Of a stretch of DNA of 64,000 nucleotides, positions 14,269-43,282 are shown piece after piece. The notes below the pieces were generated by a model. The model was not told the origin of the DNA. It saw only the letters and a program-made list of their open reading frames with translations, and did no database searches. The translations under genes and the position numbers were made by a program. This DNA comes from Modestobacter sp. VKM Ac-2984 (lineage in GTDB: Bacteria > Actinomycetota > Actinomycetes > Mycobacteriales > Geodermatophilaceae): positions 62,001 to 126,000 of the forward strand of contig NZ_JAPVBJ010000012.1 of the NCBI RefSeq assembly GCF_026967985.1. Direction: 5' to 3'. Each line of letters starts with the position of its first letter. Position 1 is the stretch's first letter.

Positions 14269-14723
14269 TCACCGGGTGTGCGGCGCCCGCCCCAGCGCGG
14301 CGCAGATGACGTCCGCGACCGACTCCGGGTCCTCGTGCTCCCAGAACCGGAGGACCCGCCACCCCAGCTCGGTCAGCACCGCGTCGGTGCGCCGGTCCCG
14401 GACGAGGTTGGCGGTCAACTTCGCCGCCCACCCGGCCTCTCTGCAGGGGCCCGCCGCGAGCTTGCGAGCGGTGGGGGCAGAGAGGTCCTTCATCCGTCGA
14501 TGAAGACGACGAGGCGCCGGCCCTTCCACACCAGGTCACCGCGGGCGCGGGTCTCCCGGCAGGGCCGGACGTCGACTCGGTAGCGGACGCCTCGGGCGTG
14601 CAGGCGCCGGCGGACGGCGAGCTCCGGCGCGGTGTCCCGCCGGCCGCGCCGGCGGAAGCGGGCCCGCACCGGAGCTGACGAGGGGTCCGGGGCGCGCCGG
14701 AGGTCGACCCCCGCCGCACTCAC
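14269..14723 (-). pseudogene. vsr: vsr mismatch endonuclease, disrupted by palindromic repeat
   Basis: Two pieces of one very-short-patch-repair endonuclease. The N-terminal piece starts at the GTG at 14723 (overlapping the helicase stop by four bases), runs through the DTAPELAVRRRLHARG helix and RARGDLVW (likely active-site Asp), and stops at FIDG-TGA. The C-terminal piece (from about 14430) carries WAAKLTANLVRDRR and GWRVLRFWEHE. Between them, where functional enzymes have the CFWHGC-type segment with catalytic histidines, lies repeat copy B. The 62 intervening bases are not a multiple of three. Catalytic residues and frame are lost, so it is a pseudogene. Confidence 0.88.
14434..14492 (-). 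repeat. Palindromic 3'-end repeat, copy B (inside vsr)
   Basis: Outer stem CCTCTCTGC (14436-14444) pairs with GCAGAGAGG (14477-14485). Inner CCGC pairs with GCGG, where copy A has CCCC/GGGG. On the minus strand it begins TGAAGGACC, giving the in-frame stop that ends the N-terminal vsr piece. Confidence 0.85.
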
Positions 14724-17700
14724 ACCTGGGCGACGGCCGGGGCCTGCGGTGCGGGCCGGGCCGCCGCGGTGGCGATCTCGACGAGCCGGCACAGGCCGTT
14801 GACCAGCCGCAGCTGCTCCGGCGTCTGCACCGGTGAGGTGAGCAGCGCCGGGCTGCCGACCAGGTAGGCGACGGTCTTGGCGCGGGACAGCGCCACGTTC
14901 AGCCGGTGCCGGTCGAGCAGGAAGTCCAGCCGCCGGGGCACGTGGGCACCACTGGAGGCGGCCAGGGTGAAGACGGCCACCGCCGCCTCCCGGCCCTGGA
15001 ACTTGTCCACCGTGCCGACCTCCACCTCACCCAGCCCGACCGCGGCGAGTGCGCTGCGCACCTGGTTGACCTGCGCGTTGTACGGCGTGACGACCAGGAC
15101 GTCGGCCGGCCCCATCACCCGCTCGACCCCGCCGGTCCGCCAGCTCCGGCCCATCAGCCCGGCGACGAGCTCGGCGACGACGGCCGCCTCCTCCGGGGAG
15201 GCGGAGCCGTTGCCCTCGTGCACCACCGGCACCCAGCCGATCCCGGCCGGTGCCGCCCACCGGGCCGGGGCGTCGAGCTCGTTGTCGGCCGTGACCGGCG
15301 CCGGCTGCAGCTCCCCGCCGTAGGACAGCCCGGAGACCACCCGGCACAGCGCCGGCGCCATCCGCCAGCTGCGGTCCAGGAACACCCCCCGGTCGGCGGT
15401 GAGCACCTCCTGCTCGCCCAGTACGTGCTGCAGTGCGGAGACGTCGGCGCCGTCGGGGTGGATGCCCCGGCCGGGCTGGCGCAGCTGCTGCGGGTCACCG
15501 AGCAGCACCAGGTTGGTCGCGGCCCGGCTCACCGCCAGCGTGTTGGCCAGGGACAGCTGCCCGGCCTCGTCGACGACCAGCACGTCCAGCCGGCCGGCCA
15601 GCTCCGGACGGGCGAACAGCCACGACGTCCCGGCCACCAGGTCGACGTCCCCACCGTCGAGGGCGTCGACGACCTGGCCGTTGGAGCCGACGCACTGCAC
15701 GTCGGCGTCGCGGCACCGCTGCAGCTCATCGGCCTTCTGCAGCGCCCGGACCGGCACCCCGGCCTCCCGGGCGGCCGCCATCACCGCGTCGAGCAGGTTG
15801 CCGATCACCTTGTGGCTGGAGGCGGTCACGCCCACCCGCTTGCCGGCGCGGACCAGGTCGACGACGGCGCGGGCGCCGGTGTACGTCTTCCCCGCTCCCG
15901 GCGGGCCCTGGACCGCCAGCACTCCGCCGTCGAGCAGCCCGGCCAGCCGGCGCACCGCGGCCGCCGACTCCTCCCCGGGCTCCCGCTGCGGTGCCCCGGC
16001 GAGCAGCCGTGGCGGCCGGCGCAGCAGCAGGTCACGGGCCGATCGGACGGGACCCGGGGCGTCGATGCCGCTGCCCGCCACCTGCTCGCCGAGGTCGGTG
16101 AGCGCGGCCCGGAAGAGCTTGTCGCTCGGCGGCGAGGTGGGCAGCAGACCGGTCGGGTGCTCGAGGGCGGCGGCCGCGCCGCGCGCCAGCACCACCCAGC
16201 CGGCGGTCGGGTCGATGTCGACGACCGAGCTGGTGAGCCGCTTCCCGTCCGCGGCGGGCAGCAGGTGCTCGTACCGGTTGCCGGCCGACACCTTGGTCTC
16301 CTGCGGCGGGAACCGGTAGCGCCAGTGCTGTGACCGCTGCGCCGCACCGACCAGCTCGGGCGCCTCCAGCGGGCCCAGCGCCGGGGTCTCCCGCTCCAGG
16401 TCGTCCGCGGCCAGGTCACGCAGCCGGAAGTACTCCCACCAGGCCGAGCGAGCCTCCCGGGCGTGCCAGCCCAGCTGCTGGGCCAGCAGCCAGGTGGCCT
16501 CCTGCTCCGGGGTCCGGTCGGTGTCGGGCAGCCCGGCGGTCAGCCGGAGCTCCAGCTCCTCGCGCAGCTCCTGAGCCGCGGCGTTCTCCGCGGAGCCGTC
16601 CGGGTCGCCGTCCTCCGGCCGGACCAGCCGCGCACCGGAGGCGAGCAGCTCGGTGCGCCGGGCCTCCAGCCAGTCGCGCAGCTCCCGGGTGGAGACGCAG
16701 TCGTCGCGGTTGTAGGCCTCGATCTGGTCGAGCAGCGCCTGGTCGCGGGTGGCGAGCCAGCGTTCGAAGGCGACGATGCTCTCCCCGGCGTCCGACACGT
16801 CGGCGCCGTGCACGCGGGTGTGCCCGCGGTAGTAGTCCTCCACCTGCTTGATCGAGTACGACTCCTTGCTCAGCCGCAGCCCCTGGCGCACCACTGCGTA
16901 GAGGTCGACGAGGACGTCGGCCCGCAGCAGCCGGTCGACCTCGGCCTCCCGGGTCTGCAACCGGGCCGACAGCGTCTTGAGCCGGGTCGGCTCGTAGGGC
17001 GCGTAGTGGAAGACGTGCATCGCCGGGTCCGCGGCGTGGGCTGCGGTCAGGTGGTCGACCAGCGCTTCGAACGCGAGACGCTCGGCAGCGGACTGGTCGT
17101 CAGCGGCCGGGTCGCAGCCCCAGAAGGCGGTGAACTCCCCGGCGGTGTCCAGGACCCCCCACAGGTACTCCAGCCCGGCGTCGCCGGCGAAGGGATCGCC
17201 CTCGATGTCGAAGAACAGGTCGCCGGCGCTCGGCGGCGGCAGCAGCTCGAAGCCGCGCCCCGGCTCGCGCGGCAGGAACTCGTAGGTGGGCAGCCCGGAC
17301 TCGCGCTCCTGCACCTGCAGCCGGGCCTGCTGGGTGAGCCGCTCCCGCGAGCTGCGGCCGATGGCGTCGGGCAGCTCGTCGGGGGTGCGGGTGGCCAGCG
17401 CGGTGACGGTCGGGACACCGGCCTCGACCAGCGCGGTCGCGTGGTCGCGGCGCATGAAGGCCACGAGGGACAGCGAGTCCTCCTCGCGCCAGCGCGCGGT
17501 GCAGGTCTCCCGCCAGGGGCAGACGCCGCAGTGCGCGTTCGGGTACGGCGGCGCCAGCTCCCCGTCAGCGAGCCGGGCGAGGAACCGGGTGCGGGCGGCC
17601 CGGGTGTAGGCCTCCGCGTCGGAGTACCGGAACACCAGCTCCTGCTGGTCGCCGGTGACCACCGTGAGCAGCTCGGGCGGCACGCCCTGCAGCCCGGCCA

Positions 17701-18181
17701 GCAGGTCGCCGTACAGCGCCATCTGCAGCAGGGCCGGCACCTTGATCCGGCGGGCCAGCTTGGTGTCGGCGACGTCGTAGGCCCAGGCCCCCAGGTCACT
17801 GACCCGGTCGGTGCGCTTGAGCAGGAAGTCGGCGTGCCCGCGCCAGGTGCCGTCGAAGAAGGTGGCCTGGTAGACGACGTCCGCGCCGGCGCGCATCGCG
17901 GCGAGCGTCTCGGCCTGGGCCCGGTGCAGGCCGGCGGCGTCCTTCCCCGACGGCCCGGTGACCTCCACGACCGACAGGCCCCGGTCCCGCAGGCGCTGCA
18001 CGTGCCGCTCCTCGTGCGCCATGCCGTGGGCGGCGACCAGCTCGGTCATCGGGTCGACCGCCGGCGGCCGGCTCCGGGAACCGCGGGCGACCTCGAGGGA
18101 GAGCCGGGTGAGGTGCTCGCACTCGATGAAGCCGGTCAGGTCACTGGCACTGACCACCAGCGCGCCGTCGGACTCGTACAC
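14720..18181 (-). CDS. TM0106-type RecB-like nuclease / SF1 helicase
   Basis: A 1,153-residue DNA-processing protein. The N-terminus is a RecB/Cas4-like nuclease: Cys21 plus CGVCPWRETC (Cys218, 221, 227) would hold an Fe-S cluster as in AddB/Cas4, and HADFL (Asp118), YDVADTKLA (Asp136, Lys141) and QMALYG (Gln153) are the nuclease motifs. The middle (about 330-500) has RNase H/exonuclease-like acidic motifs (FFDIEGDPF, NRDDC). The C-terminus is an SF1 helicase: QGPPGAGKT near 758, VVDEAGQ, and LNVALSRAKT. Probable role in DNA repair or defence; the true partner is unknown. GTG start; its stop overlaps the vsr remnant. Confidence 0.88.
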   Translation of the reverse strand: MYESDGALVVSASDLTGFIECEHLTRLSLEVARGSRSRPPAVDPMTELVAAHGMAHEERHVQRLRDRGLSVVEVTGPSGKDAAGLHRAQAETLAAMRAGADVVYQATFFDGTWRGHADFLLKRTDRVSDLGAWAYDVADTKLARRIKVPALLQMALYGDLLAGLQGVPPELLTVVTGDQQELVFRYSDAEAYTRAARTRFLARLADGELAPPYPNAHCGVCPWRETCTARWREEDSLSLVAFMRRDHATALVEAGVPTVTALATRTPDELPDAIGRSSRERLTQQARLQVQERESGLPTYEFLPREPGRGFELLPPPSAGDLFFDIEGDPFAGDAGLEYLWGVLDTAGEFTAFWGCDPAADDQSAAERLAFEALVDHLTAAHAADPAMHVFHYAPYEPTRLKTLSARLQTREAEVDRLLRADVLVDLYAVVRQGLRLSKESYSIKQVEDYYRGHTRVHGADVSDAGESIVAFERWLATRDQALLDQIEAYNRDDCVSTRELRDWLEARRTELLASGARLVRPEDGDPDGSAENAAAQELREELELRLTAGLPDTDRTPEQEATWLLAQQLGWHAREARSAWWEYFRLRDLAADDLERETPALGPLEAPELVGAAQRSQHWRYRFPPQETKVSAGNRYEHLLPAADGKRLTSSVVDIDPTAGWVVLARGAAAALEHPTGLLPTSPPSDKLFRAALTDLGEQVAGSGIDAPGPVRSARDLLLRRPPRLLAGAPQREPGEESAAAVRRLAGLLDGGVLAVQGPPGAGKTYTGARAVVDLVRAGKRVGVTASSHKVIGNLLDAVMAAAREAGVPVRALQKADELQRCRDADVQCVGSNGQVVDALDGGDVDLVAGTSWLFARPELAGRLDVLVVDEAGQLSLANTLAVSRAATNLVLLGDPQQLRQPGRGIHPDGADVSALQHVLGEQEVLTADRGVFLDRSWRMAPALCRVVSGLSYGGELQPAPVTADNELDAPARWAAPAGIGWVPVVHEGNGSASPEEAAVVAELVAGLMGRSWRTGGVERVMGPADVLVVTPYNAQVNQVRSALAAVGLGEVEVGTVDKFQGREAAVAVFTLAASSGAHVPRRLDFLLDRHRLNVALSRAKTVAYLVGSPALLTSPVQTPEQLRLVNGLCRLVEIATAAARPAPQAPAVAQV

Positions 18182-25896: not shown

Positions 25897-25902
25897 CAGC
25901 GG

Positions 25903-25990
25903 CGCACACGGGAGCCCGGGCGCGGGCTGAGAAGGCGGACGACCACCGCCGACCGTCCACACCTGATCCGGTTCATGCCGGCGGAGGGAG
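25903..25990 (+). promoter_or_regulatory. TPP riboswitch (THI element)
   Basis: The two conserved blocks of the thiamin pyrophosphate aptamer are present: GGGCTGAGA at 25924-25932 and, after a short variable stem (GGCGG/CCGCC), ACCTGATCCGG followed by ATGCCGGCGGAGGGAG up to 25990. This matches the THI-box pattern ACCTGATC-YGG-n-ATnCCRGCG-AGGGA closely, with one change in the TAAT loop (TCAT). The terminal GGAGGGAG also serves as ribosome-binding site for the ATG at 25998, so TPP binding should mask translation initiation. Confidence 0.93.
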
Positions 25991-25997
25991 CTGCTCG

Positions 25998-27008
25998 ATG
26001 CTCGCTGCTCGATTCCACGCACCCGGTCGACCCCTGGCCCTGGACGACGTCCCGGTGCCCGAGCCGGCCCCCGACGAGGTGCGGGTGCGGGTGCGCGCGG
26101 CCGGGGTCTGCGGCACCGAGCTGCACTTCACCGACGGCCTGTACGCCCCGTCCCGGACGCCGATGACCCTGGGCCACGAGGCGGCCGGCACGGTCGACGC
26201 GGTCGGTTCCGCGGTCACCGGCTGGGCCGAGGGCGACCGGGTCGCCGTCTACTACTACCTGTTCTGCGGCAGCTGCCGCTGGTGCCTGCGCGGCCGGCAG
26301 AACCTGTGCCTGGCCCCGCGCGGCGTGCTCGCCTTCGCCGCGGACGGCGCCTTCGCCGAGCAGCTCGTGGTGCCGGCGCACTGCCTGGTCCGGTTGCCCG
26401 ACGAGCTCTCCTTCGAGGCGGCCGCACCGCTGTGCTGCGCCGGCACCACCGCGGTGCACGCACTGACCGAGGCCGGGGTCGAGCCCGGTGACGTGGTGGT
26501 CGTGCTCGGCGCCGGCGGCGTGGGCCTGGCCGCGGTGCAGGAGGCCCGGCGACGCGGCGGCGTGGTCGTGGCCGTCAGCCGGGACGACGCCCGCCGGTCG
26601 GCCGCCCGGTCTGCCGGGGCCGTGGCCGCGGTCTCCCCCGCCGAGCTCGCCGAGACGGTGGCCCGGCTGCCCGGCGGGCAGGGCGCCGACGTCGTCGTCG
26701 AGCTCGCCGGGGTGACGGCGACCCTGGAGCTGGCGACGGCGGTGCTCGGCCGCCGCGGCCGGCTGGTGCTGGTCGGCTACAGCGCCGACGCACTGACGGT
26801 GAGCCCGCTGGGGATGGTGGTCGCCGAGCAACGGGTGATCGCCAGCGTGGGCAGCACGCTGGCCGAGCTGGAGCAGGCGGTGTCCCTGGCCGCAGCGGGG
26901 CAGCTCGCACCGCCGGTGGCCGGCCGGATGCCGCTGACCGAGGTCAACGAGGCGCTGGACCGGCTGCGCGCCGGGGACGTCGCGGGCCGGCTCGTGCTCG
27001 TCCCCTGA
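25998..27008 (+). CDS. Zinc-type alcohol dehydrogenase family protein under TPP control
   Basis: A 336-residue medium-chain dehydrogenase. The catalytic zinc site is visible as VCGTELH (Cys about 38) and LGHEAAG (His about 60, Glu); the structural zinc set is in FCGSCRWCLRGRQNLC. The Rossmann loop VLGAGGVGLAAVQ is near 170. Substrate unknown. The start is fixed by GGAGGGAG eight bases upstream, which is the 3' strand of a TPP riboswitch. The MFS gene 44 bases downstream probably shares the transcript. Control by TPP suggests a role in thiamin or precursor handling, which is inference. Confidence 0.9.
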   Translation: MLAARFHAPGRPLALDDVPVPEPAPDEVRVRVRAAGVCGTELHFTDGLYAPSRTPMTLGHEAAGTVDAVGSAVTGWAEGDRVAVYYYLFCGSCRWCLRGRQNLCLAPRGVLAFAADGAFAEQLVVPAHCLVRLPDELSFEAAAPLCCAGTTAVHALTEAGVEPGDVVVVLGAGGVGLAAVQEARRRGGVVVAVSRDDARRSAARSAGAVAAVSPAELAETVARLPGGQGADVVVELAGVTATLELATAVLGRRGRLVLVGYSADALTVSPLGMVVAEQRVIASVGSTLAELEQAVSLAAAGQLAPPVAGRMPLTEVNEALDRLRAGDVAGRLVLVP

Positions 27009-36744: not shown

Positions 36745-36984
36745 ATGGCCTTCCCGTACCGCACGGCCCGCGCCGTGATGATGGTCGGGTCGCTGAACGA
36801 CCCGGCCGGCCAGACAGCCCGGCTGATCGGACCGGCGCACGCCACCCTGGGGCTCAGCGGTGCCCGCGGTCGCACGGCTCTCTGCGGCGCCTACGTCGCC
36901 CGGGACGAGCAGGTGCCGTGGCCGCCGGAGCCTGGGCTCTGCGACGACCTCTGCTCGGACTGCAGCACCCTCGCCCGGCTCTGA
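36745..36984 (+). CDS. Small hypothetical protein
   Basis: A 79-residue protein with four late cysteines (CGAYV near 47, then CDDLCSDC near 66-73), which could bind a metal. No known domain. The start region lacks a Shine-Dalgarno. Codon use matches the neighbours. It lies between a terminator hairpin and the large helicase gene and may be a single transcript. A spurious frame cannot be ruled out. Confidence 0.4.
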   Translation: MAFPYRTARAVMMVGSLNDPAGQTARLIGPAHATLGLSGARGRTALCGAYVARDEQVPWPPEPGLCDDLCSDCSTLARL

Positions 36985-37141
36985 CGCCGCTCGTCGGCGC
37001 CCAGCTCGGACCGGGCTCCGCCGGCTCGCCGGACCCCGGCTGACGGGTGTTCCGTCACGGACCGGCAACTGCTGTCACACCCGTCCCACGGGTGTGGCCC
37101 GCCTGAGCGGAACGGTCCGTCCGACCAGGTACACAGACTCC

Positions 37142-40100
37142 ATGCGCATCGCTGCCGACCTCCAGGTGAGCACCGAGGGCCCGGCGGCGGCGTCCTCACC
37201 GTCGGTCTCCGTCGAGCTCACGGTCAGCCCGGTGGTCAGCTACGCCCTCGCCGCCCACGCCGTGCCGGTCGTCTCCCGACTCGTCCTCGCCGGCAGCGCG
37301 TCCACCCTCCGTGGTGGGGTCCTCCGGCTCTCCGTGCGGGACGCCCAGGGCGACCTCGGCCCCACCGTCGAGCGGCTGGTCGACCTCGAGGCCGGCCGCA
37401 GCACCGTGCTCGACGACGTCGGCCTCACCCTGGACCCGGCCACCCTGTGCCAGGGCCAGGAGAGCCGGCCGGGCTGGGTGCACGTGGAGCTGGCAGCCGC
37501 GGACCAGGTGCTGGCCGAGCACCGGGTGCCGGTGACGGTCCTGGGCGCCGCCCAGTGGCTGGCTGCTCCCCTGCCGACGGCCCTGGAGGTGCTCGCCGCC
37601 CACGTGCAGCCGCAGCACCCGGCGGTCCACACCCTGGTGGCCGAAGCTGCCGCCCTCCTCGAGGAGGGCACCGGCAGCGACAGCCTGACCGGCTACGCCG
37701 ACGGGCCCGAGCGGGTCGACGAGGTGGTCGAGGCGATCACCTGGGCGGTGCGCCGCCGCGAGGTCCGGCACCGCCAGCCGTCGGCCGGCTGGACGGCGTC
37801 CGGCCACCAGGTCCGCGACCCCGGCGAGGTCCTCGACGGCCGGGCCGGCACCTGCCTGGACACCGTCGTCACCCTCGCGGCTGCGCTCGAGCACGCCCAC
37901 CTCCGCCCGCTGCTCTGGGTGGTGGAGGGGCACGCCTTCCTGGGCTACTGGCGGGAGGAGCGGAGTGCCGAGACGGCTGCGACGACGGAGGTCACGGCCC
38001 TGGTCGACCAGGTCGACCGGGGCCTGATCGGCCTGGTCGAGACCACCCTGCTGACCGACCGCGGCAACACCACCCCCGACCTGCACGGTCCGGCCTACAC
38101 CGCCTGGCTGTCCGGCGACCTCTCCCGGGTCCTCGGCGTCACCGACGTCCACCGTGCCCGCCTCGACGGGATCCGGCCGCTGGCAGGTCGCACCGGCGGG
38201 GACGGCGGCACGCAGCAGGAGCCCACGCAGCACCCGGCCGAGGTCCCGGCGCCGACCGACGAGCCCGCGGCGTCCGCGACCGACGACTCCCCGCCCGTGC
38301 CGCCGCGGGTGCAGCAGTGGACGGACGCGCTGCTCGACCTGAGCCCGCGCAACCGGCTGCTCGACCTCACCGAGGGCTCCGGGCTGCCGCTGGCGGTGCC
38401 GCACGATGCGCTGACCGCGCTGGCGGACCTGGTCACCAGCGGGGCGACGCTGACCCTGCTGCCCAACGGCGGGACCGCCGGGGCGCACGCCGAGCGCGGG
38501 GTGCGCGTGGCCCGGGACCTGCCGCCGCAGCAACTGCTCACCGAGCACCGGTCGGTGCACGTCGACGTCCCCCGTGCCGACCACCCGTCCCGACTGCGCG
38601 CCCTCGACCACCGGGCGCGGACGGTGGTCGAGGAGACCGGCGCCAACGCCCTGTACCTGGCCCTGGGCAGCCTGGTCTGGGAGGTCGACGGCCGCCCGCT
38701 GCGGTCACCGGTGGTGCTCGTCCCGGTCCTGCTCACCCCGGCCGGCCCGGACGGGGGGTACCGGCTCACGGTCGACGAGACCGGGAACAGCGTGCCGAAC
38801 GCCTGTCTGCTGGAACAGCTCCGCCGGGTGCACGGGCTGACCGTGCCGGGGCTGGCCGCTGCGGCCGAGGACGGCGCTGACGTCGACCTGGCCACCACGC
38901 TGCAGGCGCTCGGTGAGGCGTTGGCCGCCGCCGCGCTCCCCCACCGGGTCGAGGCGACCGCGGACCTGGCCGTCCTGCCGGTCGCGGCGCACCGGCTGTG
39001 GCGCGACCTCGACGAGCACTGGGCCGAGTTCGCGTCCAGCCCTCTCCTCGCCCACCTGGCGCACTCCCCGACCGAGGCCTTCGCCGACCCGGCACCCGCC
39101 CCCGCCGACCCGATCGACCTCGACGAGCTCGCCGCGCAGTGCCCGCTGCCGAGCGATGCCGCCCAGCTGCGTGCGGTCGCCGAGGCGGCCGCCGGAGGGA
39201 CGTTCGTGCTCGAGGGCCCGCCCGGCACCGGCAAGTCCCAGACCATCGCCAACCTGGTGACCCGGGCCGTCGCCGAGGGCAAGCGGGTGCTGGTCGTCGC
39301 CGGCAAGCGCGCCGCGCTCGACGTCCTCGCCCGCCGGCTCGACGCGGTCGGGATGGGCCCGTTCGCGCTAGACCTGCACGACAAGGGCAGCCGGCCCGCC
39401 GTCGTCCGGGCACAGATCCGGGCCGCGCTGGAGCATGCGGTGGACGTCGACGCCGCGGGCCTGGCGGCCGACGCGGAGGAACTGCGGTCCGCGCGGCGCA
39501 GCCTGCAGCGCTACGCGGAGCAGCTGCACGCCGACAACCCGGCCGGGCTGTCCTGTTACTCCGCCCGCACCGCCGTGCTGGCTGCCGGATCCGGCGTCGA
39601 CCCGCTGCCGGTGACCGTCCGCTTCGCGGCCCGGGCCACCGCCGAGGTGGTCACCGAGGTGCGCCGGGCGCTGGCGCTGCTGCCCGACATCGCCGGGCTG
39701 GCCCGCCCGTCGGCCGGGCACGCCTGGGCGTTCATCGACACCATCGAGGTGGACATCACCGAGGTCCAGCAGGCCGCGGTCGCCGTCGACTCGGCGATCC
39801 GGGAGCTGCCGGGCGAGGGTGGGCTGGCCGCGGTGCTGCGCGCCACCGGCACCCCGGAGGACCTGGACGCCCTGGTGCACCTGCTCGGCGGCCCCCGGAT
39901 CAGCCTGGCGGTGCTCGACGAGGTGCGCACGCCGCGCTGGTCGGCGGCCACCGACGACCTGCTCGGCGAGATCGCCGCCCTGGTCGCCGCACCGCACCCC
40001 GGCCTGGACGCCGTCACCCCGGCCGCCCTCGACCTGCCGCTGGCCGACCTGTTCGTGCAGGCCCAGGAGGCCGCGGCGGCGAGCTGGGTGGCCCGGCGCG

Positions 40101-43100
40101 GCAAGCTGACCGCCGTCCGGGACCAGCTGACCCCGGTGGCGCGCCCGGGGAGCTCCATCAAGCCCGGTGAGGTGCCCGAGCTGACCGCCGCGCTGCGCCG
40201 GCTGCAGACCGCCGTCCAGGGCCTGGCCGCCCGGGCCGCCGGCATCCCGGGGCTGCAGGTGCCGCCCGGCTGGAACCCCTTCACCGAGCCCGGCCGGTCG
40301 GTGTTCGACGCCGAGGTGCGCTGGCTGCGCCGCGCCGCGGCCACCGTGGACGGGGCCACCGGCTTCCCGGCGGCGGTGCGCCGGTTCCTCACCGCCGGCC
40401 CGGTGGCCGACGCGGCCGGCGCCCGCACCGTGGCCCGGCTGCGCGACGCCCTCCGCCAGCTGCTGACGGTCTGCTCCAGCGACTCGGCCCGACTGGCCGC
40501 CTGGAGCGGTGAGGACGGCTTGGTGCTGCGCTGGACCATGACCCGGCCCGAGCGGGGCGTCGAGTACGTGCACCCGATGTCGCTGCGCCGGTGGGTCAGC
40601 CTGCTGGACACCCTGGAGCCGCTCCGGCTGGCCGGGCTGAGCGAGGCCCGGCTGCAGCTGCTGCACGGTGCCGTGCCCGCCGACGACGCGGTCCACGCCT
40701 TCGACCGCGGACTGGCCGAGGCCTCGGTCGGCGAGCGGCAACAGGCCACGGGGCTGGACGCGTTCGACGCCGGGCTGCACGAGCGCACCGTCGCCCGGTT
40801 CGCCGCGGCCTCGCGGGCCGTGCGGTCGCACCTGGTCGATGCCGTGCCCGCCGGCGTGCTGGCGGCCCGGTCGTTCGACGCGGCTGCGGCCGACGGCCAG
40901 GTCGGTGCCCTGCGGCGTGAGCTGGCCGAGCAGGGCCGCGGCCTGGGCGTGCGCGGGCTGCTGACGACCTACGGCGACCTGATCACCGCGGTCCTGCCGT
41001 GCGTGCTGGCCAGCCCGGAGTCGGTGGCGCGCTTCTTCCCCGCGGTCGCCGGCCAGTTCGACCTGGTCGTCTTCGACGAGGCGTCCCAGCTCCGGCTCGC
41101 CGACGCCGTCGGTGCACTGGGCCGGGCCCGGGCGGCGGTGGTGGTCGGGGACAGCGAGCAGCTGCCGCCGGCGTCCCCCGGCGATCCGGCCGGCATCGCC
41201 GAGGAGGGCCAGGTCGCCGACGAGAGCCGCGCCGAGGAGAGCATCCTCTCCGCCTGCGTGCAGGCCGGGGTGCCGCGGCAGTGGCTGTCCTGGCACTACC
41301 GCAGCCAGGACGAGTCGCTGATCGCCTTCAGCAACGCCCACCACTACGGCAACCGGCTGTCCTCCTTCCCGGCACCGGTGCACACCCCAGCCTCCGCCGC
41401 CCCGGACGGCCACGGCATCTCCCTGGTGCAGGTCGCCGGCACGTTCCTGCGCTTCGGCCCCGGCGTGCACACGAACCCGGTGGAGGCCCGTGCCGTCGTC
41501 GCCGAGGTGCTGCGCCGCTTCTCCCTGGCCGCGACGGCGATCCCGTCGATCGCGGTGATCACCGTGAACGCACCGCAGCGGACGCTGATCGAGGAGCTGC
41601 TGCGCGACTCCGGGGACGAGCGCGTGGTCGAGGCGCTGGACTCCGGCGACGGGCTCGTCGTGAAGGACGTCGGCCACGTGCAGGGTGACGAGCGGGACGT
41701 CGTCCTGCTCTCCCTCGGGTTCAGCGCGGACGTGCGCGGCCGGGTCCCGCTGGACCTCGGGCCGCTGAGCCGCAGCGGCGGGGAACGCCGGCTCAACGTG
41801 GCCGTCACCCGCGCCCGCCGGCAGGTCGTCGTCTTCAGCTCCTTCGCCCCCGAACAGCTGCCCGCCGGGCAGACCGCATCGGTGGGGGTCCAGCGCCTGC
41901 GCGCCTACCTCGACCTGGCCGCCCGGGGCACCGACGCCCTCCCCCGCACCGACCGGTCCGCGGAGCTGCACGACGCCCACCGCGACGAGGTGGCCGCCGA
42001 GTTGCGTGCCCGCGGCATGGTGGTGCGCACGGACGTCGGGCTGTCGGACTTCCGCATCGACCTGACCGTCGCCCACGGGACGACGCCGGACGCCCCGGTG
42101 CTGGCGGTCCTGCTCGACGGCCCGGAGTGGGCGCGGCGCCGCACGGTCGGGGACCGCGACGGCCTCCCGGTCGAGGTGCTGGGTGGACTGATGCACTGGC
42201 CGGCGGTGGAGCGGGTGTGGCTGCCGACCTGGCTGGCCGACCGCGAGACCGTGCTCACCGCCTTGGAGGCGGCGGTGGAGGCGGCCTCCCCGGCGCCGTC
42301 CGCGGCCGAGCCGGCGACGCCGGAGGAGGTGGAGGAGCCCTACGACGGCCCGCTCGCCGACGTCATCCCGCTCCGCCCGCTCGCGCCCCGGCCGGCCCTG
42401 GTCCCCAAGCCCGAACCCGCCCCCGAGCCCGTGGCGGTCGAGCCCGAGCCCGTCGTGGCGGAGCCCGAGCCCGAGCCCGTCGTGGTCGAGCCCGAGCCCG
42501 CTCCCGTCCTGGCCGAGCCCGAGTCCCTCGCGGTCGAGCCGGTGGTGGTCGAGCCCGCACCCGTCGTGGAGGCGGCAGCCGTCGCCGAGCCGGTGGCCCC
42601 GCAGCCGGCGGAGGCCGCTGCGGCAGCACCGACCAGGCCCGTCGGCAGGCCGACGCCGAAGGCGCCGGCCCGGGTCACCCGCGCGGCCACCACGCCACTG
42701 GACGAGGAGCAGCCGTTCATCCCCTGGGCGCCGAGGCAGGCCGGCGACAAGCGGCAGCTGGACCGGTTGACCGATCCCACCGTCGCTCGGCTGGTGCGCC
42801 GGGTGCTCACCGCGGGCATCAAGGCGGAGGGCCCGGTGCACCGGGACCGGCTGACCCGGCTCACCGCGGCGGCGTTCGGGCTGTCCCGGGTGACCGAGGC
42901 CCGGCGGGACGCGGTGCTGGCGCTGCTGCCGGCCACCGCCGTCGACGGCGACTTCCTGTGGCCGGCCTCGATCGATCGGGAGACGTGGAGCTGGTTCCGC
43001 CGTCAGGACAGCAGCACCGACCGGCCGCTGGACCAGGTGGCGCCGCAGGAGATCGCCAACGCCATGGTGGCGCTCTGCCGGGCCCGCAACGGCCTGTCCC

Positions 43101-43246
43101 GCGACGAGCTGCAGCTGCGGACGCTCGAGGTCTTCGGTCACCGCCGGCGCACCGCCGCCCTGGTGCCGCTGCTGGACGCCGTCCTGACCGGCGCGCTGGC
43201 CAGCGGGCGGCTCACCGAGCAGCCGTCCGGCCGGATCACCGTCTGA
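37142..43246 (+). CDS. Giant transglutaminase-like/DUF4011/SF1 helicase/Vsr-like/DUF3320 protein
   Basis: A 2,034-residue protein. Transglutaminase-like core with GTCLD (Cys about 237) and EGHAFLGYW (His about 264); DUF4011 about 390-420 (LLDLSPRNRLLDL); SF1 helicase with GPPGTGKS near 692-699, VVFDEASQL near 1310, WHYRSQDESL near 1383 and NVAVTRARRQ near 1551; a Vsr/MTES_1575-like endonuclease fold about 1609-1717 (FRIDLTV, LAVLLDG); a Pro-Val-Glu-rich repeat about 1753-1833; DUF3320 at 1855-2034. This order recalls single-protein anti-phage candidates of the Hhe type (from memory). The ATG at 37142 starts the family-like part. The nuclease site lacks its usual Glu. Role in defence or repair is inference. 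Confidence 0.9.
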   Translation: MRIAADLQVSTEGPAAASSPSVSVELTVSPVVSYALAAHAVPVVSRLVLAGSASTLRGGVLRLSVRDAQGDLGPTVERLVDLEAGRSTVLDDVGLTLDPATLCQGQESRPGWVHVELAAADQVLAEHRVPVTVLGAAQWLAAPLPTALEVLAAHVQPQHPAVHTLVAEAAALLEEGTGSDSLTGYADGPERVDEVVEAITWAVRRREVRHRQPSAGWTASGHQVRDPGEVLDGRAGTCLDTVVTLAAALEHAHLRPLLWVVEGHAFLGYWREERSAETAATTEVTALVDQVDRGLIGLVETTLLTDRGNTTPDLHGPAYTAWLSGDLSRVLGVTDVHRARLDGIRPLAGRTGGDGGTQQEPTQHPAEVPAPTDEPAASATDDSPPVPPRVQQWTDALLDLSPRNRLLDLTEGSGLPLAVPHDALTALADLVTSGATLTLLPNGGTAGAHAERGVRVARDLPPQQLLTEHRSVHVDVPRADHPSRLRALDHRARTVVEETGANALYLALGSLVWEVDGRPLRSPVVLVPVLLTPAGPDGGYRLTVDETGNSVPNACLLEQLRRVHGLTVPGLAAAAEDGADVDLATTLQALGEALAAAALPHRVEATADLAVLPVAAHRLWRDLDEHWAEFASSPLLAHLAHSPTEAFADPAPAPADPIDLDELAAQCPLPSDAAQLRAVAEAAAGGTFVLEGPPGTGKSQTIANLVTRAVAEGKRVLVVAGKRAALDVLARRLDAVGMGPFALDLHDKGSRPAVVRAQIRAALEHAVDVDAAGLAADAEELRSARRSLQRYAEQLHADNPAGLSCYSARTAVLAAGSGVDPLPVTVRFAARATAEVVTEVRRALALLPDIAGLARPSAGHAWAFIDTIEVDITEVQQAAVAVDSAIRELPGEGGLAAVLRATGTPEDLDALVHLLGGPRISLAVLDEVRTPRWSAATDDLLGEIAALVAAPHPGLDAVTPAALDLPLADLFVQAQEAAAASWVARRGKLTAVRDQLTPVARPGSSIKPGEVPELTAALRRLQTAVQGLAARAAGIPGLQVPPGWNPFTEPGRSVFDAEVRWLRRAAATVDGATGFPAAVRRFLTAGPVADAAGARTVARLRDALRQLLTVCSSDSARLAAWSGEDGLVLRWTMTRPERGVEYVHPMSLRRWVSLLDTLEPLRLAGLSEARLQLLHGAVPADDAVHAFDRGLAEASVGERQQATGLDAFDAGLHERTVARFAAASRAVRSHLVDAVPAGVLAARSFDAAAADGQVGALRRELAEQGRGLGVRGLLTTYGDLITAVLPCVLASPESVARFFPAVAGQFDLVVFDEASQLRLADAVGALGRARAAVVVGDSEQLPPASPGDPAGIAEEGQVADESRAEESILSACVQAGVPRQWLSWHYRSQDESLIAFSNAHHYGNRLSSFPAPVHTPASAAPDGHGISLVQVAGTFLRFGPGVHTNPVEARAVVAEVLRRFSLAATAIPSIAVITVNAPQRTLIEELLRDSGDERVVEALDSGDGLVVKDVGHVQGDERDVVLLSLGFSADVRGRVPLDLGPLSRSGGERRLNVAVTRARRQVVVFSSFAPEQLPAGQTASVGVQRLRAYLDLAARGTDALPRTDRSAELHDAHRDEVAAELRARGMVVRTDVGLSDFRIDLTVAHGTTPDAPVLAVLLDGPEWARRRTVGDRDGLPVEVLGGLMHWPAVERVWLPTWLADRETVLTALEAAVEAASPAPSAAEPATPEEVEEPYDGPLADVIPLRPLAPRPALVPKPEPAPEPVAVEPEPVVAEPEPEPVVVEPEPAPVLAEPESLAVEPVVVEPAPVVEAAAVAEPVAPQPAEAAAAAPTRPVGRPTPKAPARVTRAATTPLDEEQPFIPWAPRQAGDKRQLDRLTDPTVARLVRRVLTAGIKAEGPVHRDRLTRLTAAAFGLSRVTEARRDAVLALLPATAVDGDFLWPASIDRETWSWFRRQDSSTDRPLDQVAPQEIANAMVALCRARNGLSRDELQLRTLEVFGHRRRTAALVPLLDAVLTGALASGRLTEQPSGRITV

Positions 43247-43248
43247 TC

Positions 43249-43282
43249 CCGGGGCGGCGGGGCCCCGTCCCCGCCGCCCCGG
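43249..43282. terminator. 14-bp bidirectional terminator
   Basis: CCGGGGCGGCGGGG (43249-43262) pairs perfectly with 43269-43282 around a CCCCGT loop. It fills the gap between the convergent helicase and HD genes exactly. No T-tract. Confidence 0.85.

What the first reader, a model, noticed from the sequence alone, without database searches (positions are those of the whole stretch)
37142..43246. Giant helicase with Vsr-like domain: candidate defence protein with altered active site
The domain order transglutaminase-like, DUF4011, SF1 helicase, Vsr-like fold, DUF3320 recalls single-gene anti-phage proteins. The nuclease-like domain keeps FRIDLTV and LDG but has Leu where the family usually has Glu (the LAVLLDG strand against an ECDG-type one), so it may be inactive or use other residues. 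A Pro-Val-Glu repeat links it to DUF3320. Both ends of the locus are marked by hairpins, so it is an autonomous unit.
Basis: partly seen in the sequence, partly recalled or inferred. Interest (0 to 1): 0.6.

Follow-up and report, generated by a model that had tools for sequence, protein, structure and literature searches.

The report
ProA helicase with a dead nuclease
The gene encodes a giant helicase of a named anti-phage family whose nuclease-like part looks catalytically dead in every relative checked; here it is a fixed chromosomal gene, and many related strains also keep a second copy whose motor looks dead.

Summary
The 2034-residue gene at 37142-43246 (+) is real. It scores 1516 bits against the NCBIfam model "anti-phage protein ProA" (cut-off 1500). 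Its architecture (transglutaminase-like, SF1 helicase, Vsr-like, winged helix) was described in 2013 for MTES_1575. The Leu-for-Glu change is real but no oddity of this gene: 79 of 79 aligned family rows lack the Glu (78 Leu, 1 Val), while 29 of 32 outgroup rows keep it. The predicted fold is Vsr-like; the catalytic Glu and His are gone but the rest of the domain is strongly conserved, which suggests a binding or structural module. The N-terminal HEPN RNase of MTES_1575-type relatives is absent. The "autonomous unit" reading fails: the hairpins are not conserved, and the gene is chromosomal with conserved neighbours, present in 18 of 18 good Modestobacter genomes. By elimination the ATPase motor, perhaps with the transglutaminase-like site, is the likely working part. 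Outside the stated finding, 12 of 18 genomes carry a full-length paralogue, 13-40 kb downstream where placed, that has lost the Walker-B Glu (12 of 12) yet shows purifying selection between near relatives. That pseudo-motor is the most novel observation. Anti-phage activity of this gene is untested.

The parts
37142..43246 (+). ProA-family giant helicase, 2034 aa (type A, the family ortholog)
37211..37550 (+). N-terminal Ig-like beta-sandwich (about residues 24-136)
   Evidence: model and fold matches over model residues 1-112
37560..38178 (+). Transglutaminase/PNGase-like domain (about residues 140-345), candidate triad Cys238, His264, Glu300
   Evidence: fold matches 3kd4 and 3esw; residue counts; the triad assignment is my inference from positions in the model's secondary structure
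38330..38821 (+). DUF4011 (397-560)
39155..39481 (+). SF1 motor, first part with Walker A GPPGTGKSQ (Lys698)
40892..41941 (+). SF1 motor, second part with Walker B DEAS (Asp1312, Glu1313), GD..Q.PP, QGDERD and TRARR motifs
41933..42283 (+). Vsr-like (MTES_1575 REase) domain lacking the catalytic Glu (Leu1657) and His (Ala1664)
42278..42751 (+). Pro/Ala/Glu/Val-rich variable linker (residues 1713-1870)
42773..42907 (+). DUF3320 (1878-1922), called winged helix-turn-helix in the 2013 paper
   Evidence: PMC3710099 passages
43249..43282 (.). 14-bp perfect inverted repeat between convergent genes, probably a terminator (inference)
37076..37096 (.). 9-bp inverted repeat upstream of the start codon, shortened to 7 bp in L009 and lost in the other orthologs

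Best explanation
It is a member of the ProA family of single-gene anti-phage helicases, in the vertically inherited form carried by Modestobacter and its relatives. The most likely working part is the UPF1/SMUBP2-like SF1 motor, which would bind and move along foreign nucleic acid under ATP hydrolysis. The Vsr-like domain has lost its catalytic residues and would serve, with the winged helix (DUF3320), as a non-cutting DNA- or partner-binding module. The transglutaminase-like domain may sense the target or cleave a protein. Shown here: family membership by score, intact motor motifs, loss of nuclease catalytic positions across the family, absence of the HEPN RNase, and chromosomal conservation. 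Inferred: that the motor is the effector, what it binds, and that the outcome is phage defence.
For: NF058533 1516.4 bits against a cut-off of 1500, over model positions 1-1903. Walker-A Lys, Walker-B Asp and Glu are kept in 78 of 78 family rows (79 rows less the own-genome type-B copy L007). The Glu position is Leu/Val in 79 of 79 rows and Glu in 29 of 32 outgroup rows; the fewest changes on the tree is 3. The predicted fold is still Vsr-like. The window gene keeps 36 of 36 Vsr-domain residues that are invariant in 21 reference proteins, but 173 of 201 motor ones. Outside the family the gene is rare: 10 of 295 other genomes of the class sample have a copy at 44% identity or more. No HEPN match in the window.
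Against: No phage assay exists here. The gene is core and chromosomal, with no PADLOC system in the neighbours tested, which is unusual for a defence gene. The score is barely above cut-off. The motor evolves faster than that of the canonical paralogue (dN/dS over 1-1712: 0.34-0.46 against 0.15-0.17), and the window gene has changed 28 of 201 invariant motor residues. The source paper for ProA was not found, so the experimental basis of the name was not seen.
Confidence: 0.5

Rival explanations
1. A housekeeping or stress nucleic-acid helicase (repair or RNA handling) kept by vertical descent and not mainly a defence gene.
For: Present in 18 of 18 good Modestobacter genomes and 93 of 112 genomes of the family; flanking order conserved in Modestobacter; RtcB RNA ligase and NUDIX genes nearby. 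Loci with a NUDIX or RtcB neighbour: 12 of 25 Blastococcus, 5 of 10 Geodermatophilus, 6 of 13 Modestobacter. A DUF4011 gene is core in every P. aeruginosa isolate of PMC10250203 (passages).
Against: Absent or only distantly present in several genera of the same family (g14-g17) and rare in the class; three diverging paralogues and fast evolution are unusual for housekeeping.
Confidence: 0.25
2. The transglutaminase-like site is the effector: a helicase-gated peptidase or transferase.
For: Fold match; the window copy has Cys238, His264 and Glu300. His is kept in 77 of 79 rows, and Glu in 77 of 79 with Asp in the other 2. The 2013 paper proposed protein cleavage.
Against: The Cys is replaced in 30 of 79 rows: 22 Pro, 5 Ser, 2 Gly, 1 Ala, mostly in Blastococcus, so activity is dispensable there.
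Confidence: 0.15
3. The Vsr-like domain is an active nuclease that uses other residues.
For: Asp1640, Asp1659 and Asp1671 are invariant in 79 of 79 rows and could bind a metal.
Against: The catalytic Glu and the His of the outgroups are both gone; the predicted model is only pLDDT 77, so geometry cannot settle it.
Confidence: 0.08
4. The first reader's autonomous, mobile defence cassette bounded by hairpins.
For: Two inverted repeats flank the gene.
Against: The repeats are not conserved in orthologs; the chromosomal context is.
Confidence: 0.02

Closest known systems
NCBIfam NF058533, anti-phage protein ProA
   Same: Full-length match, 1516.4 bits against a cut-off of 1500. Its own-genome paralogue L008 scores 1768, and members from Umezawaea, Arthrobacter and Mycobacterium 1621-1782.
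   Different: The window copy is near the cut-off. The founding paper was not seen, so the tested protein could not be compared.
MTES_1575 group of giant HEPN-transglutaminase-SF1-Vsr-wHTH proteins (PMC3710099; passages read)
   Same: Same order from the transglutaminase domain to DUF3320. L084, from the M. testaceum strain StLB037, is probably MTES_1575 itself (inference) and also has LLDG.
   Different: The window gene has no HEPN domain: HEPN is fused in 14 of 80 loci and found in none of 51 Geodermatophilaceae loci. The passages read treat the Vsr domain as a DNase; here it lacks catalytic residues.
Hhe (NF042953)
   Same: Shares the motor and Vsr-like domain; the Klebsiella plasmid copy L095 aligns.
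   Different: 432.8 bits against a cut-off of 2000; Hhe keeps the Glu and His (IECDG, YH).
Vsr endonuclease (1cw0, 1vsr)
   Same: Fold, Z 8.0 and 7.3.
   Different: Lacks the Glu and His found in the canonical relatives; no free-standing repair enzyme.

Membership tests
NCBIfam ProA (NF058533) | Score at or above the curated cut-off of 1500 bits | tested here: met
   1516.4 bits
NCBIfam ProA (NF058533) | Match over the whole model | tested here: met
   model 1-1903 over residues 33-2002
NCBIfam ProA (NF058533) | Anti-phage activity | not testable with these tools
   needs phage assays; the source paper was not found
MTES_1575 HEPN giant proteins | Transglutaminase, SF1 helicase, Vsr, DUF3320 in this order | tested here: met
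MTES_1575 HEPN giant proteins | N-terminal HEPN domain | tested here: not met
   no match in the window; 14 other loci match
Hhe (NF042953) | Score at or above the cut-off of 2000 bits | tested here: not met
   432.8 bits
Catalytically active Vsr/MTES_1575 nuclease | Vsr-like fold | tested here: met
   Pfam PF18741 45.9 bits, cut-off 38.2; 1cw0 Z 8.0
Catalytically active Vsr/MTES_1575 nuclease | Catalytic Glu and His as in canonical relatives | tested here: not met
   Leu1657 and Ala1664; which residues are catalytic is recalled, supported by conservation in the outgroups
SF1 helicase | Walker A Lys and Walker B Asp-Glu | tested here: met

The most novel reading that the evidence does not exclude
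Modestobacter carries a divided ProA set: a core motor copy (the window gene, type A), often a canonical copy (type C), and a full-length type B that has lost the Walker-B Glu in every case yet is held under purifying selection a fixed way downstream of A. Type B would be a pseudo-motor that keeps the dead Vsr-like module and works as a partner, regulator or phage-target decoy of A. If so, the dead nuclease domain is the shared recognition part and the motor is the dispensable one in B.
Probability: 0.35. Interest if true: 0.6.

Novelty: new member of a known kind. Interest (0 to 1): 0.38.

Why it matters
The family name and the Pfam domain name both suggest a DNA-cutting defence protein. The alignments suggest that this ProA clade does not cut with its Vsr-like domain, so any protection should come from the motor or the transglutaminase-like site, and that can be tested with point mutants. 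The type-B pseudo-motor, if it is a working partner, would be an unusual case of a defence-type helicase kept alive after loss of its ATPase site.

Tried and rejected
Rejected: that the Leu change marks decay of this one gene (it is family-wide); that the hairpins bound a mobile unit (not conserved); that a HEPN toxin is encoded separately beside the gene (no match in the window with a profile from 12 fused copies; a separate gene elsewhere in the genome was not searched); that the upstream GTG at 36860 is the start (the ATG at 37142 is conserved; this rests on alignment, not on protein data). The consensus promoter/terminator scan found nothing, which means little at 75% GC. Foldseek on the N-terminal model returned mainly Ig-like sandwiches, and transglutaminase folds rose only in the second look. 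Foldseek on the Vsr-like model gave no match at E 0.001 or better; the Vsr match rests on VIA-align, where Z 8 is near the level that its own notes call middling.

Weak points. The trees are quick ones with SH-aLRT only, and long rows such as L007 move: the partial-region tree places L007 inside the type-A clade, whereas the longer one puts 12 type-B rows in one clade. One search used LG+G4 without mixture. dN/dS is by Nei-Gojobori at 75% GC; for two deep B pairs it is 0.70 and 0.73 (L143/L140 and L139/L140), so purifying selection is shown only for near relatives. L009's C-terminus appears shifted in frame, so its DUF3320 figure was set aside. The invariant-residue Fisher tests are p under 0.05 in 5 of 10 type-A rows and in 11 of 11 type-B rows tested; rows are related, and L159 was not in that set. 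The position that I labelled motif VI Arg was misindexed (it is Ala); that line was not used. Rows dropped before counts: L036 and L074 (split reading frames), and L051 and L068 (no ORF of 1500 aa through the best hit).

Papers. PMC10250203 and PMC3710099: passages only. Others: search listings only. Searches for the ProA source. That the pseudo-nuclease or type B is new in print is not claimed.

Full report
What is there. The gene at 37142-43246 (+) encodes 2034 residues. Pfam finds DUF4011, two halves of an SF1 motor, the MTES_1575 Vsr-like domain and DUF3320. A model of the N-terminus shows an Ig-like sandwich followed by a transglutaminase/PNGase-like fold. The genome is Modestobacter-like: the closest loci are Modestobacter, and the window lies in contig C4 of a 4.56 Mb assembly.

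Family. NCBIfam calls it anti-phage protein ProA, 1516.4 bits with a cut-off of 1500. PADLOC gives the candidate PDC-S37, 732 bits. I did not find the paper behind the name ProA in the open library, so what was tested there is not known to me. The architecture itself was described in 2013 (PMC3710099; passages read): giant proteins with HEPN, transglutaminase-like, SF1 helicase, Vsr and winged-helix domains, predicted to act alone against invading DNA.

The nuclease-like domain. Of 79 aligned family rows (the window, its two own-genome paralogues and 76 of the 80 loci), the position of the catalytic Glu holds Leu in 78 and Val in 1. In 32 outgroup rows, Hhe among them, 29 have Glu there. Canonical relatives also have a Tyr-His pair after the DG that the family replaces, with Trp at the first place in 79 of 79 rows. 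On a tree of 85 rows the fewest changes between Glu and not-Glu is 3. The fold is predicted to be kept, and Asp1640, Asp1659 and Asp1671 are invariant. The reading as a dead, structurally kept module is an inference from conservation; an unusual active site is not excluded.

Other enzymatic parts. The HEPN domain of MTES_1575-type relatives is fused in 14 of 80 loci, one of them (L080) weak and without the R-x4-H motif, and in none of the 51 Geodermatophilaceae loci. The transglutaminase-like Cys is replaced in 30 of 79 rows. The Walker-A Lys and Walker-B Asp and Glu are kept in 78 of 78 rows other than type B. By elimination the motor is the part that the family always keeps, type B excepted.

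Where it lives. Searching with a 101-residue piece, 23 of 23 Modestobacter genomes have the family (18 of 18 of good quality); 95 of 112 genomes of the family match, 93 of them with close copies; in a class sample 43 of 296 match, but only 11 including the window's own genome at 44% identity or more. Neighbours of the window gene are conserved in order in Modestobacter, and a NUDIX or RtcB gene lies near 26 of 51 Geodermatophilaceae copies and near 0 of 29 others. It is therefore rare and scattered outside, and fixed inside, this lineage. That pattern fits a domesticated defence gene and also fits housekeeping.

Paralogues. Modestobacter has up to three types. A tree of 58 rows gives a type-A clade of 21 rows with the window gene, next to the Geodermatophilus and Blastococcus copies; a type-C clade of 9; and a type-B clade of 12, each with SH-aLRT 100. 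Type B keeps full length (1787-1985 residues of open frame), but the Walker-B Glu is lost in 12 of 12, replaced by Asp in 9 and Gly in 3. In 7 of these the Asp-Glu pair reads Glu-Asp, which might leave some activity. The Walker-A Lys is lost in 5 of 12. In the 10 genomes where both lie on one contig, B is 13-40 kb downstream of A on the same strand (coordinates).

Selection. Between the same pairs of species, dN/dS over residues 1-1712 is 0.34-0.46 for A (4 pairs), 0.19-0.32 for B (4 pairs with the window's genome; 0.22 and 0.25 for two other near pairs) and 0.15-0.17 for C (3 pairs); for two deep B pairs it is 0.70 and 0.73. Type B keeps 30-34 of 36 invariant Vsr-domain residues but 101-131 of 201 motor ones (11 rows). 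So B, between near relatives, looks like a constrained protein without a normal ATPase site.

How it most likely works. The motor, under ATP, acts on foreign nucleic acid; the Vsr-like and DUF3320 parts bind; the transglutaminase-like part senses or cuts. Only the sequence facts are shown. Defence is inferred from family naming.

Hairpins. The 3' repeat probably ends transcription between two convergent genes (inference); neither repeat is conserved.

Noticed in passing
L007 6720-12395 (own genome, C4, about 33 kb downstream of the window gene): Type-B paralogue with Walker B Asp-Glu read as Glu-Asp; related copies in other Modestobacter lose Walker A too.
   Followed up: partly
L008 4871-5445 and 12819-14990: The canonical type-C copy sits between a Fic/RHH pair and an AAA_5 (McrB-like) gene with PADLOC restriction hits, a more defence-like setting than the window copy.
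   Followed up: partly
window 25898-26007: TPP riboswitch (59.1 bits) ahead of what looks like a zinc-type dehydrogenase and a transporter; no family search of those genes was made.
   Followed up: no
window 14720-18181: 1153-aa protein with PD-(D/E)XK, RNase_H_2 and SF1 helicase domains.
   Followed up: no
L047 8001-16587: The Goekera copy is spread over 8.6 kb in two reading frames, perhaps interrupted by an insertion.
   Followed up: no
L094 and its sister plasmid records: Microbacterium chocolatum small plasmids carry ProA-like pieces split over several genes.
   Followed up: no
L009 C-terminus: The type-A ortholog of VKM Ac-2982 appears to shift frame after the Vsr-like domain: sequencing error or real.
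   Followed up: no
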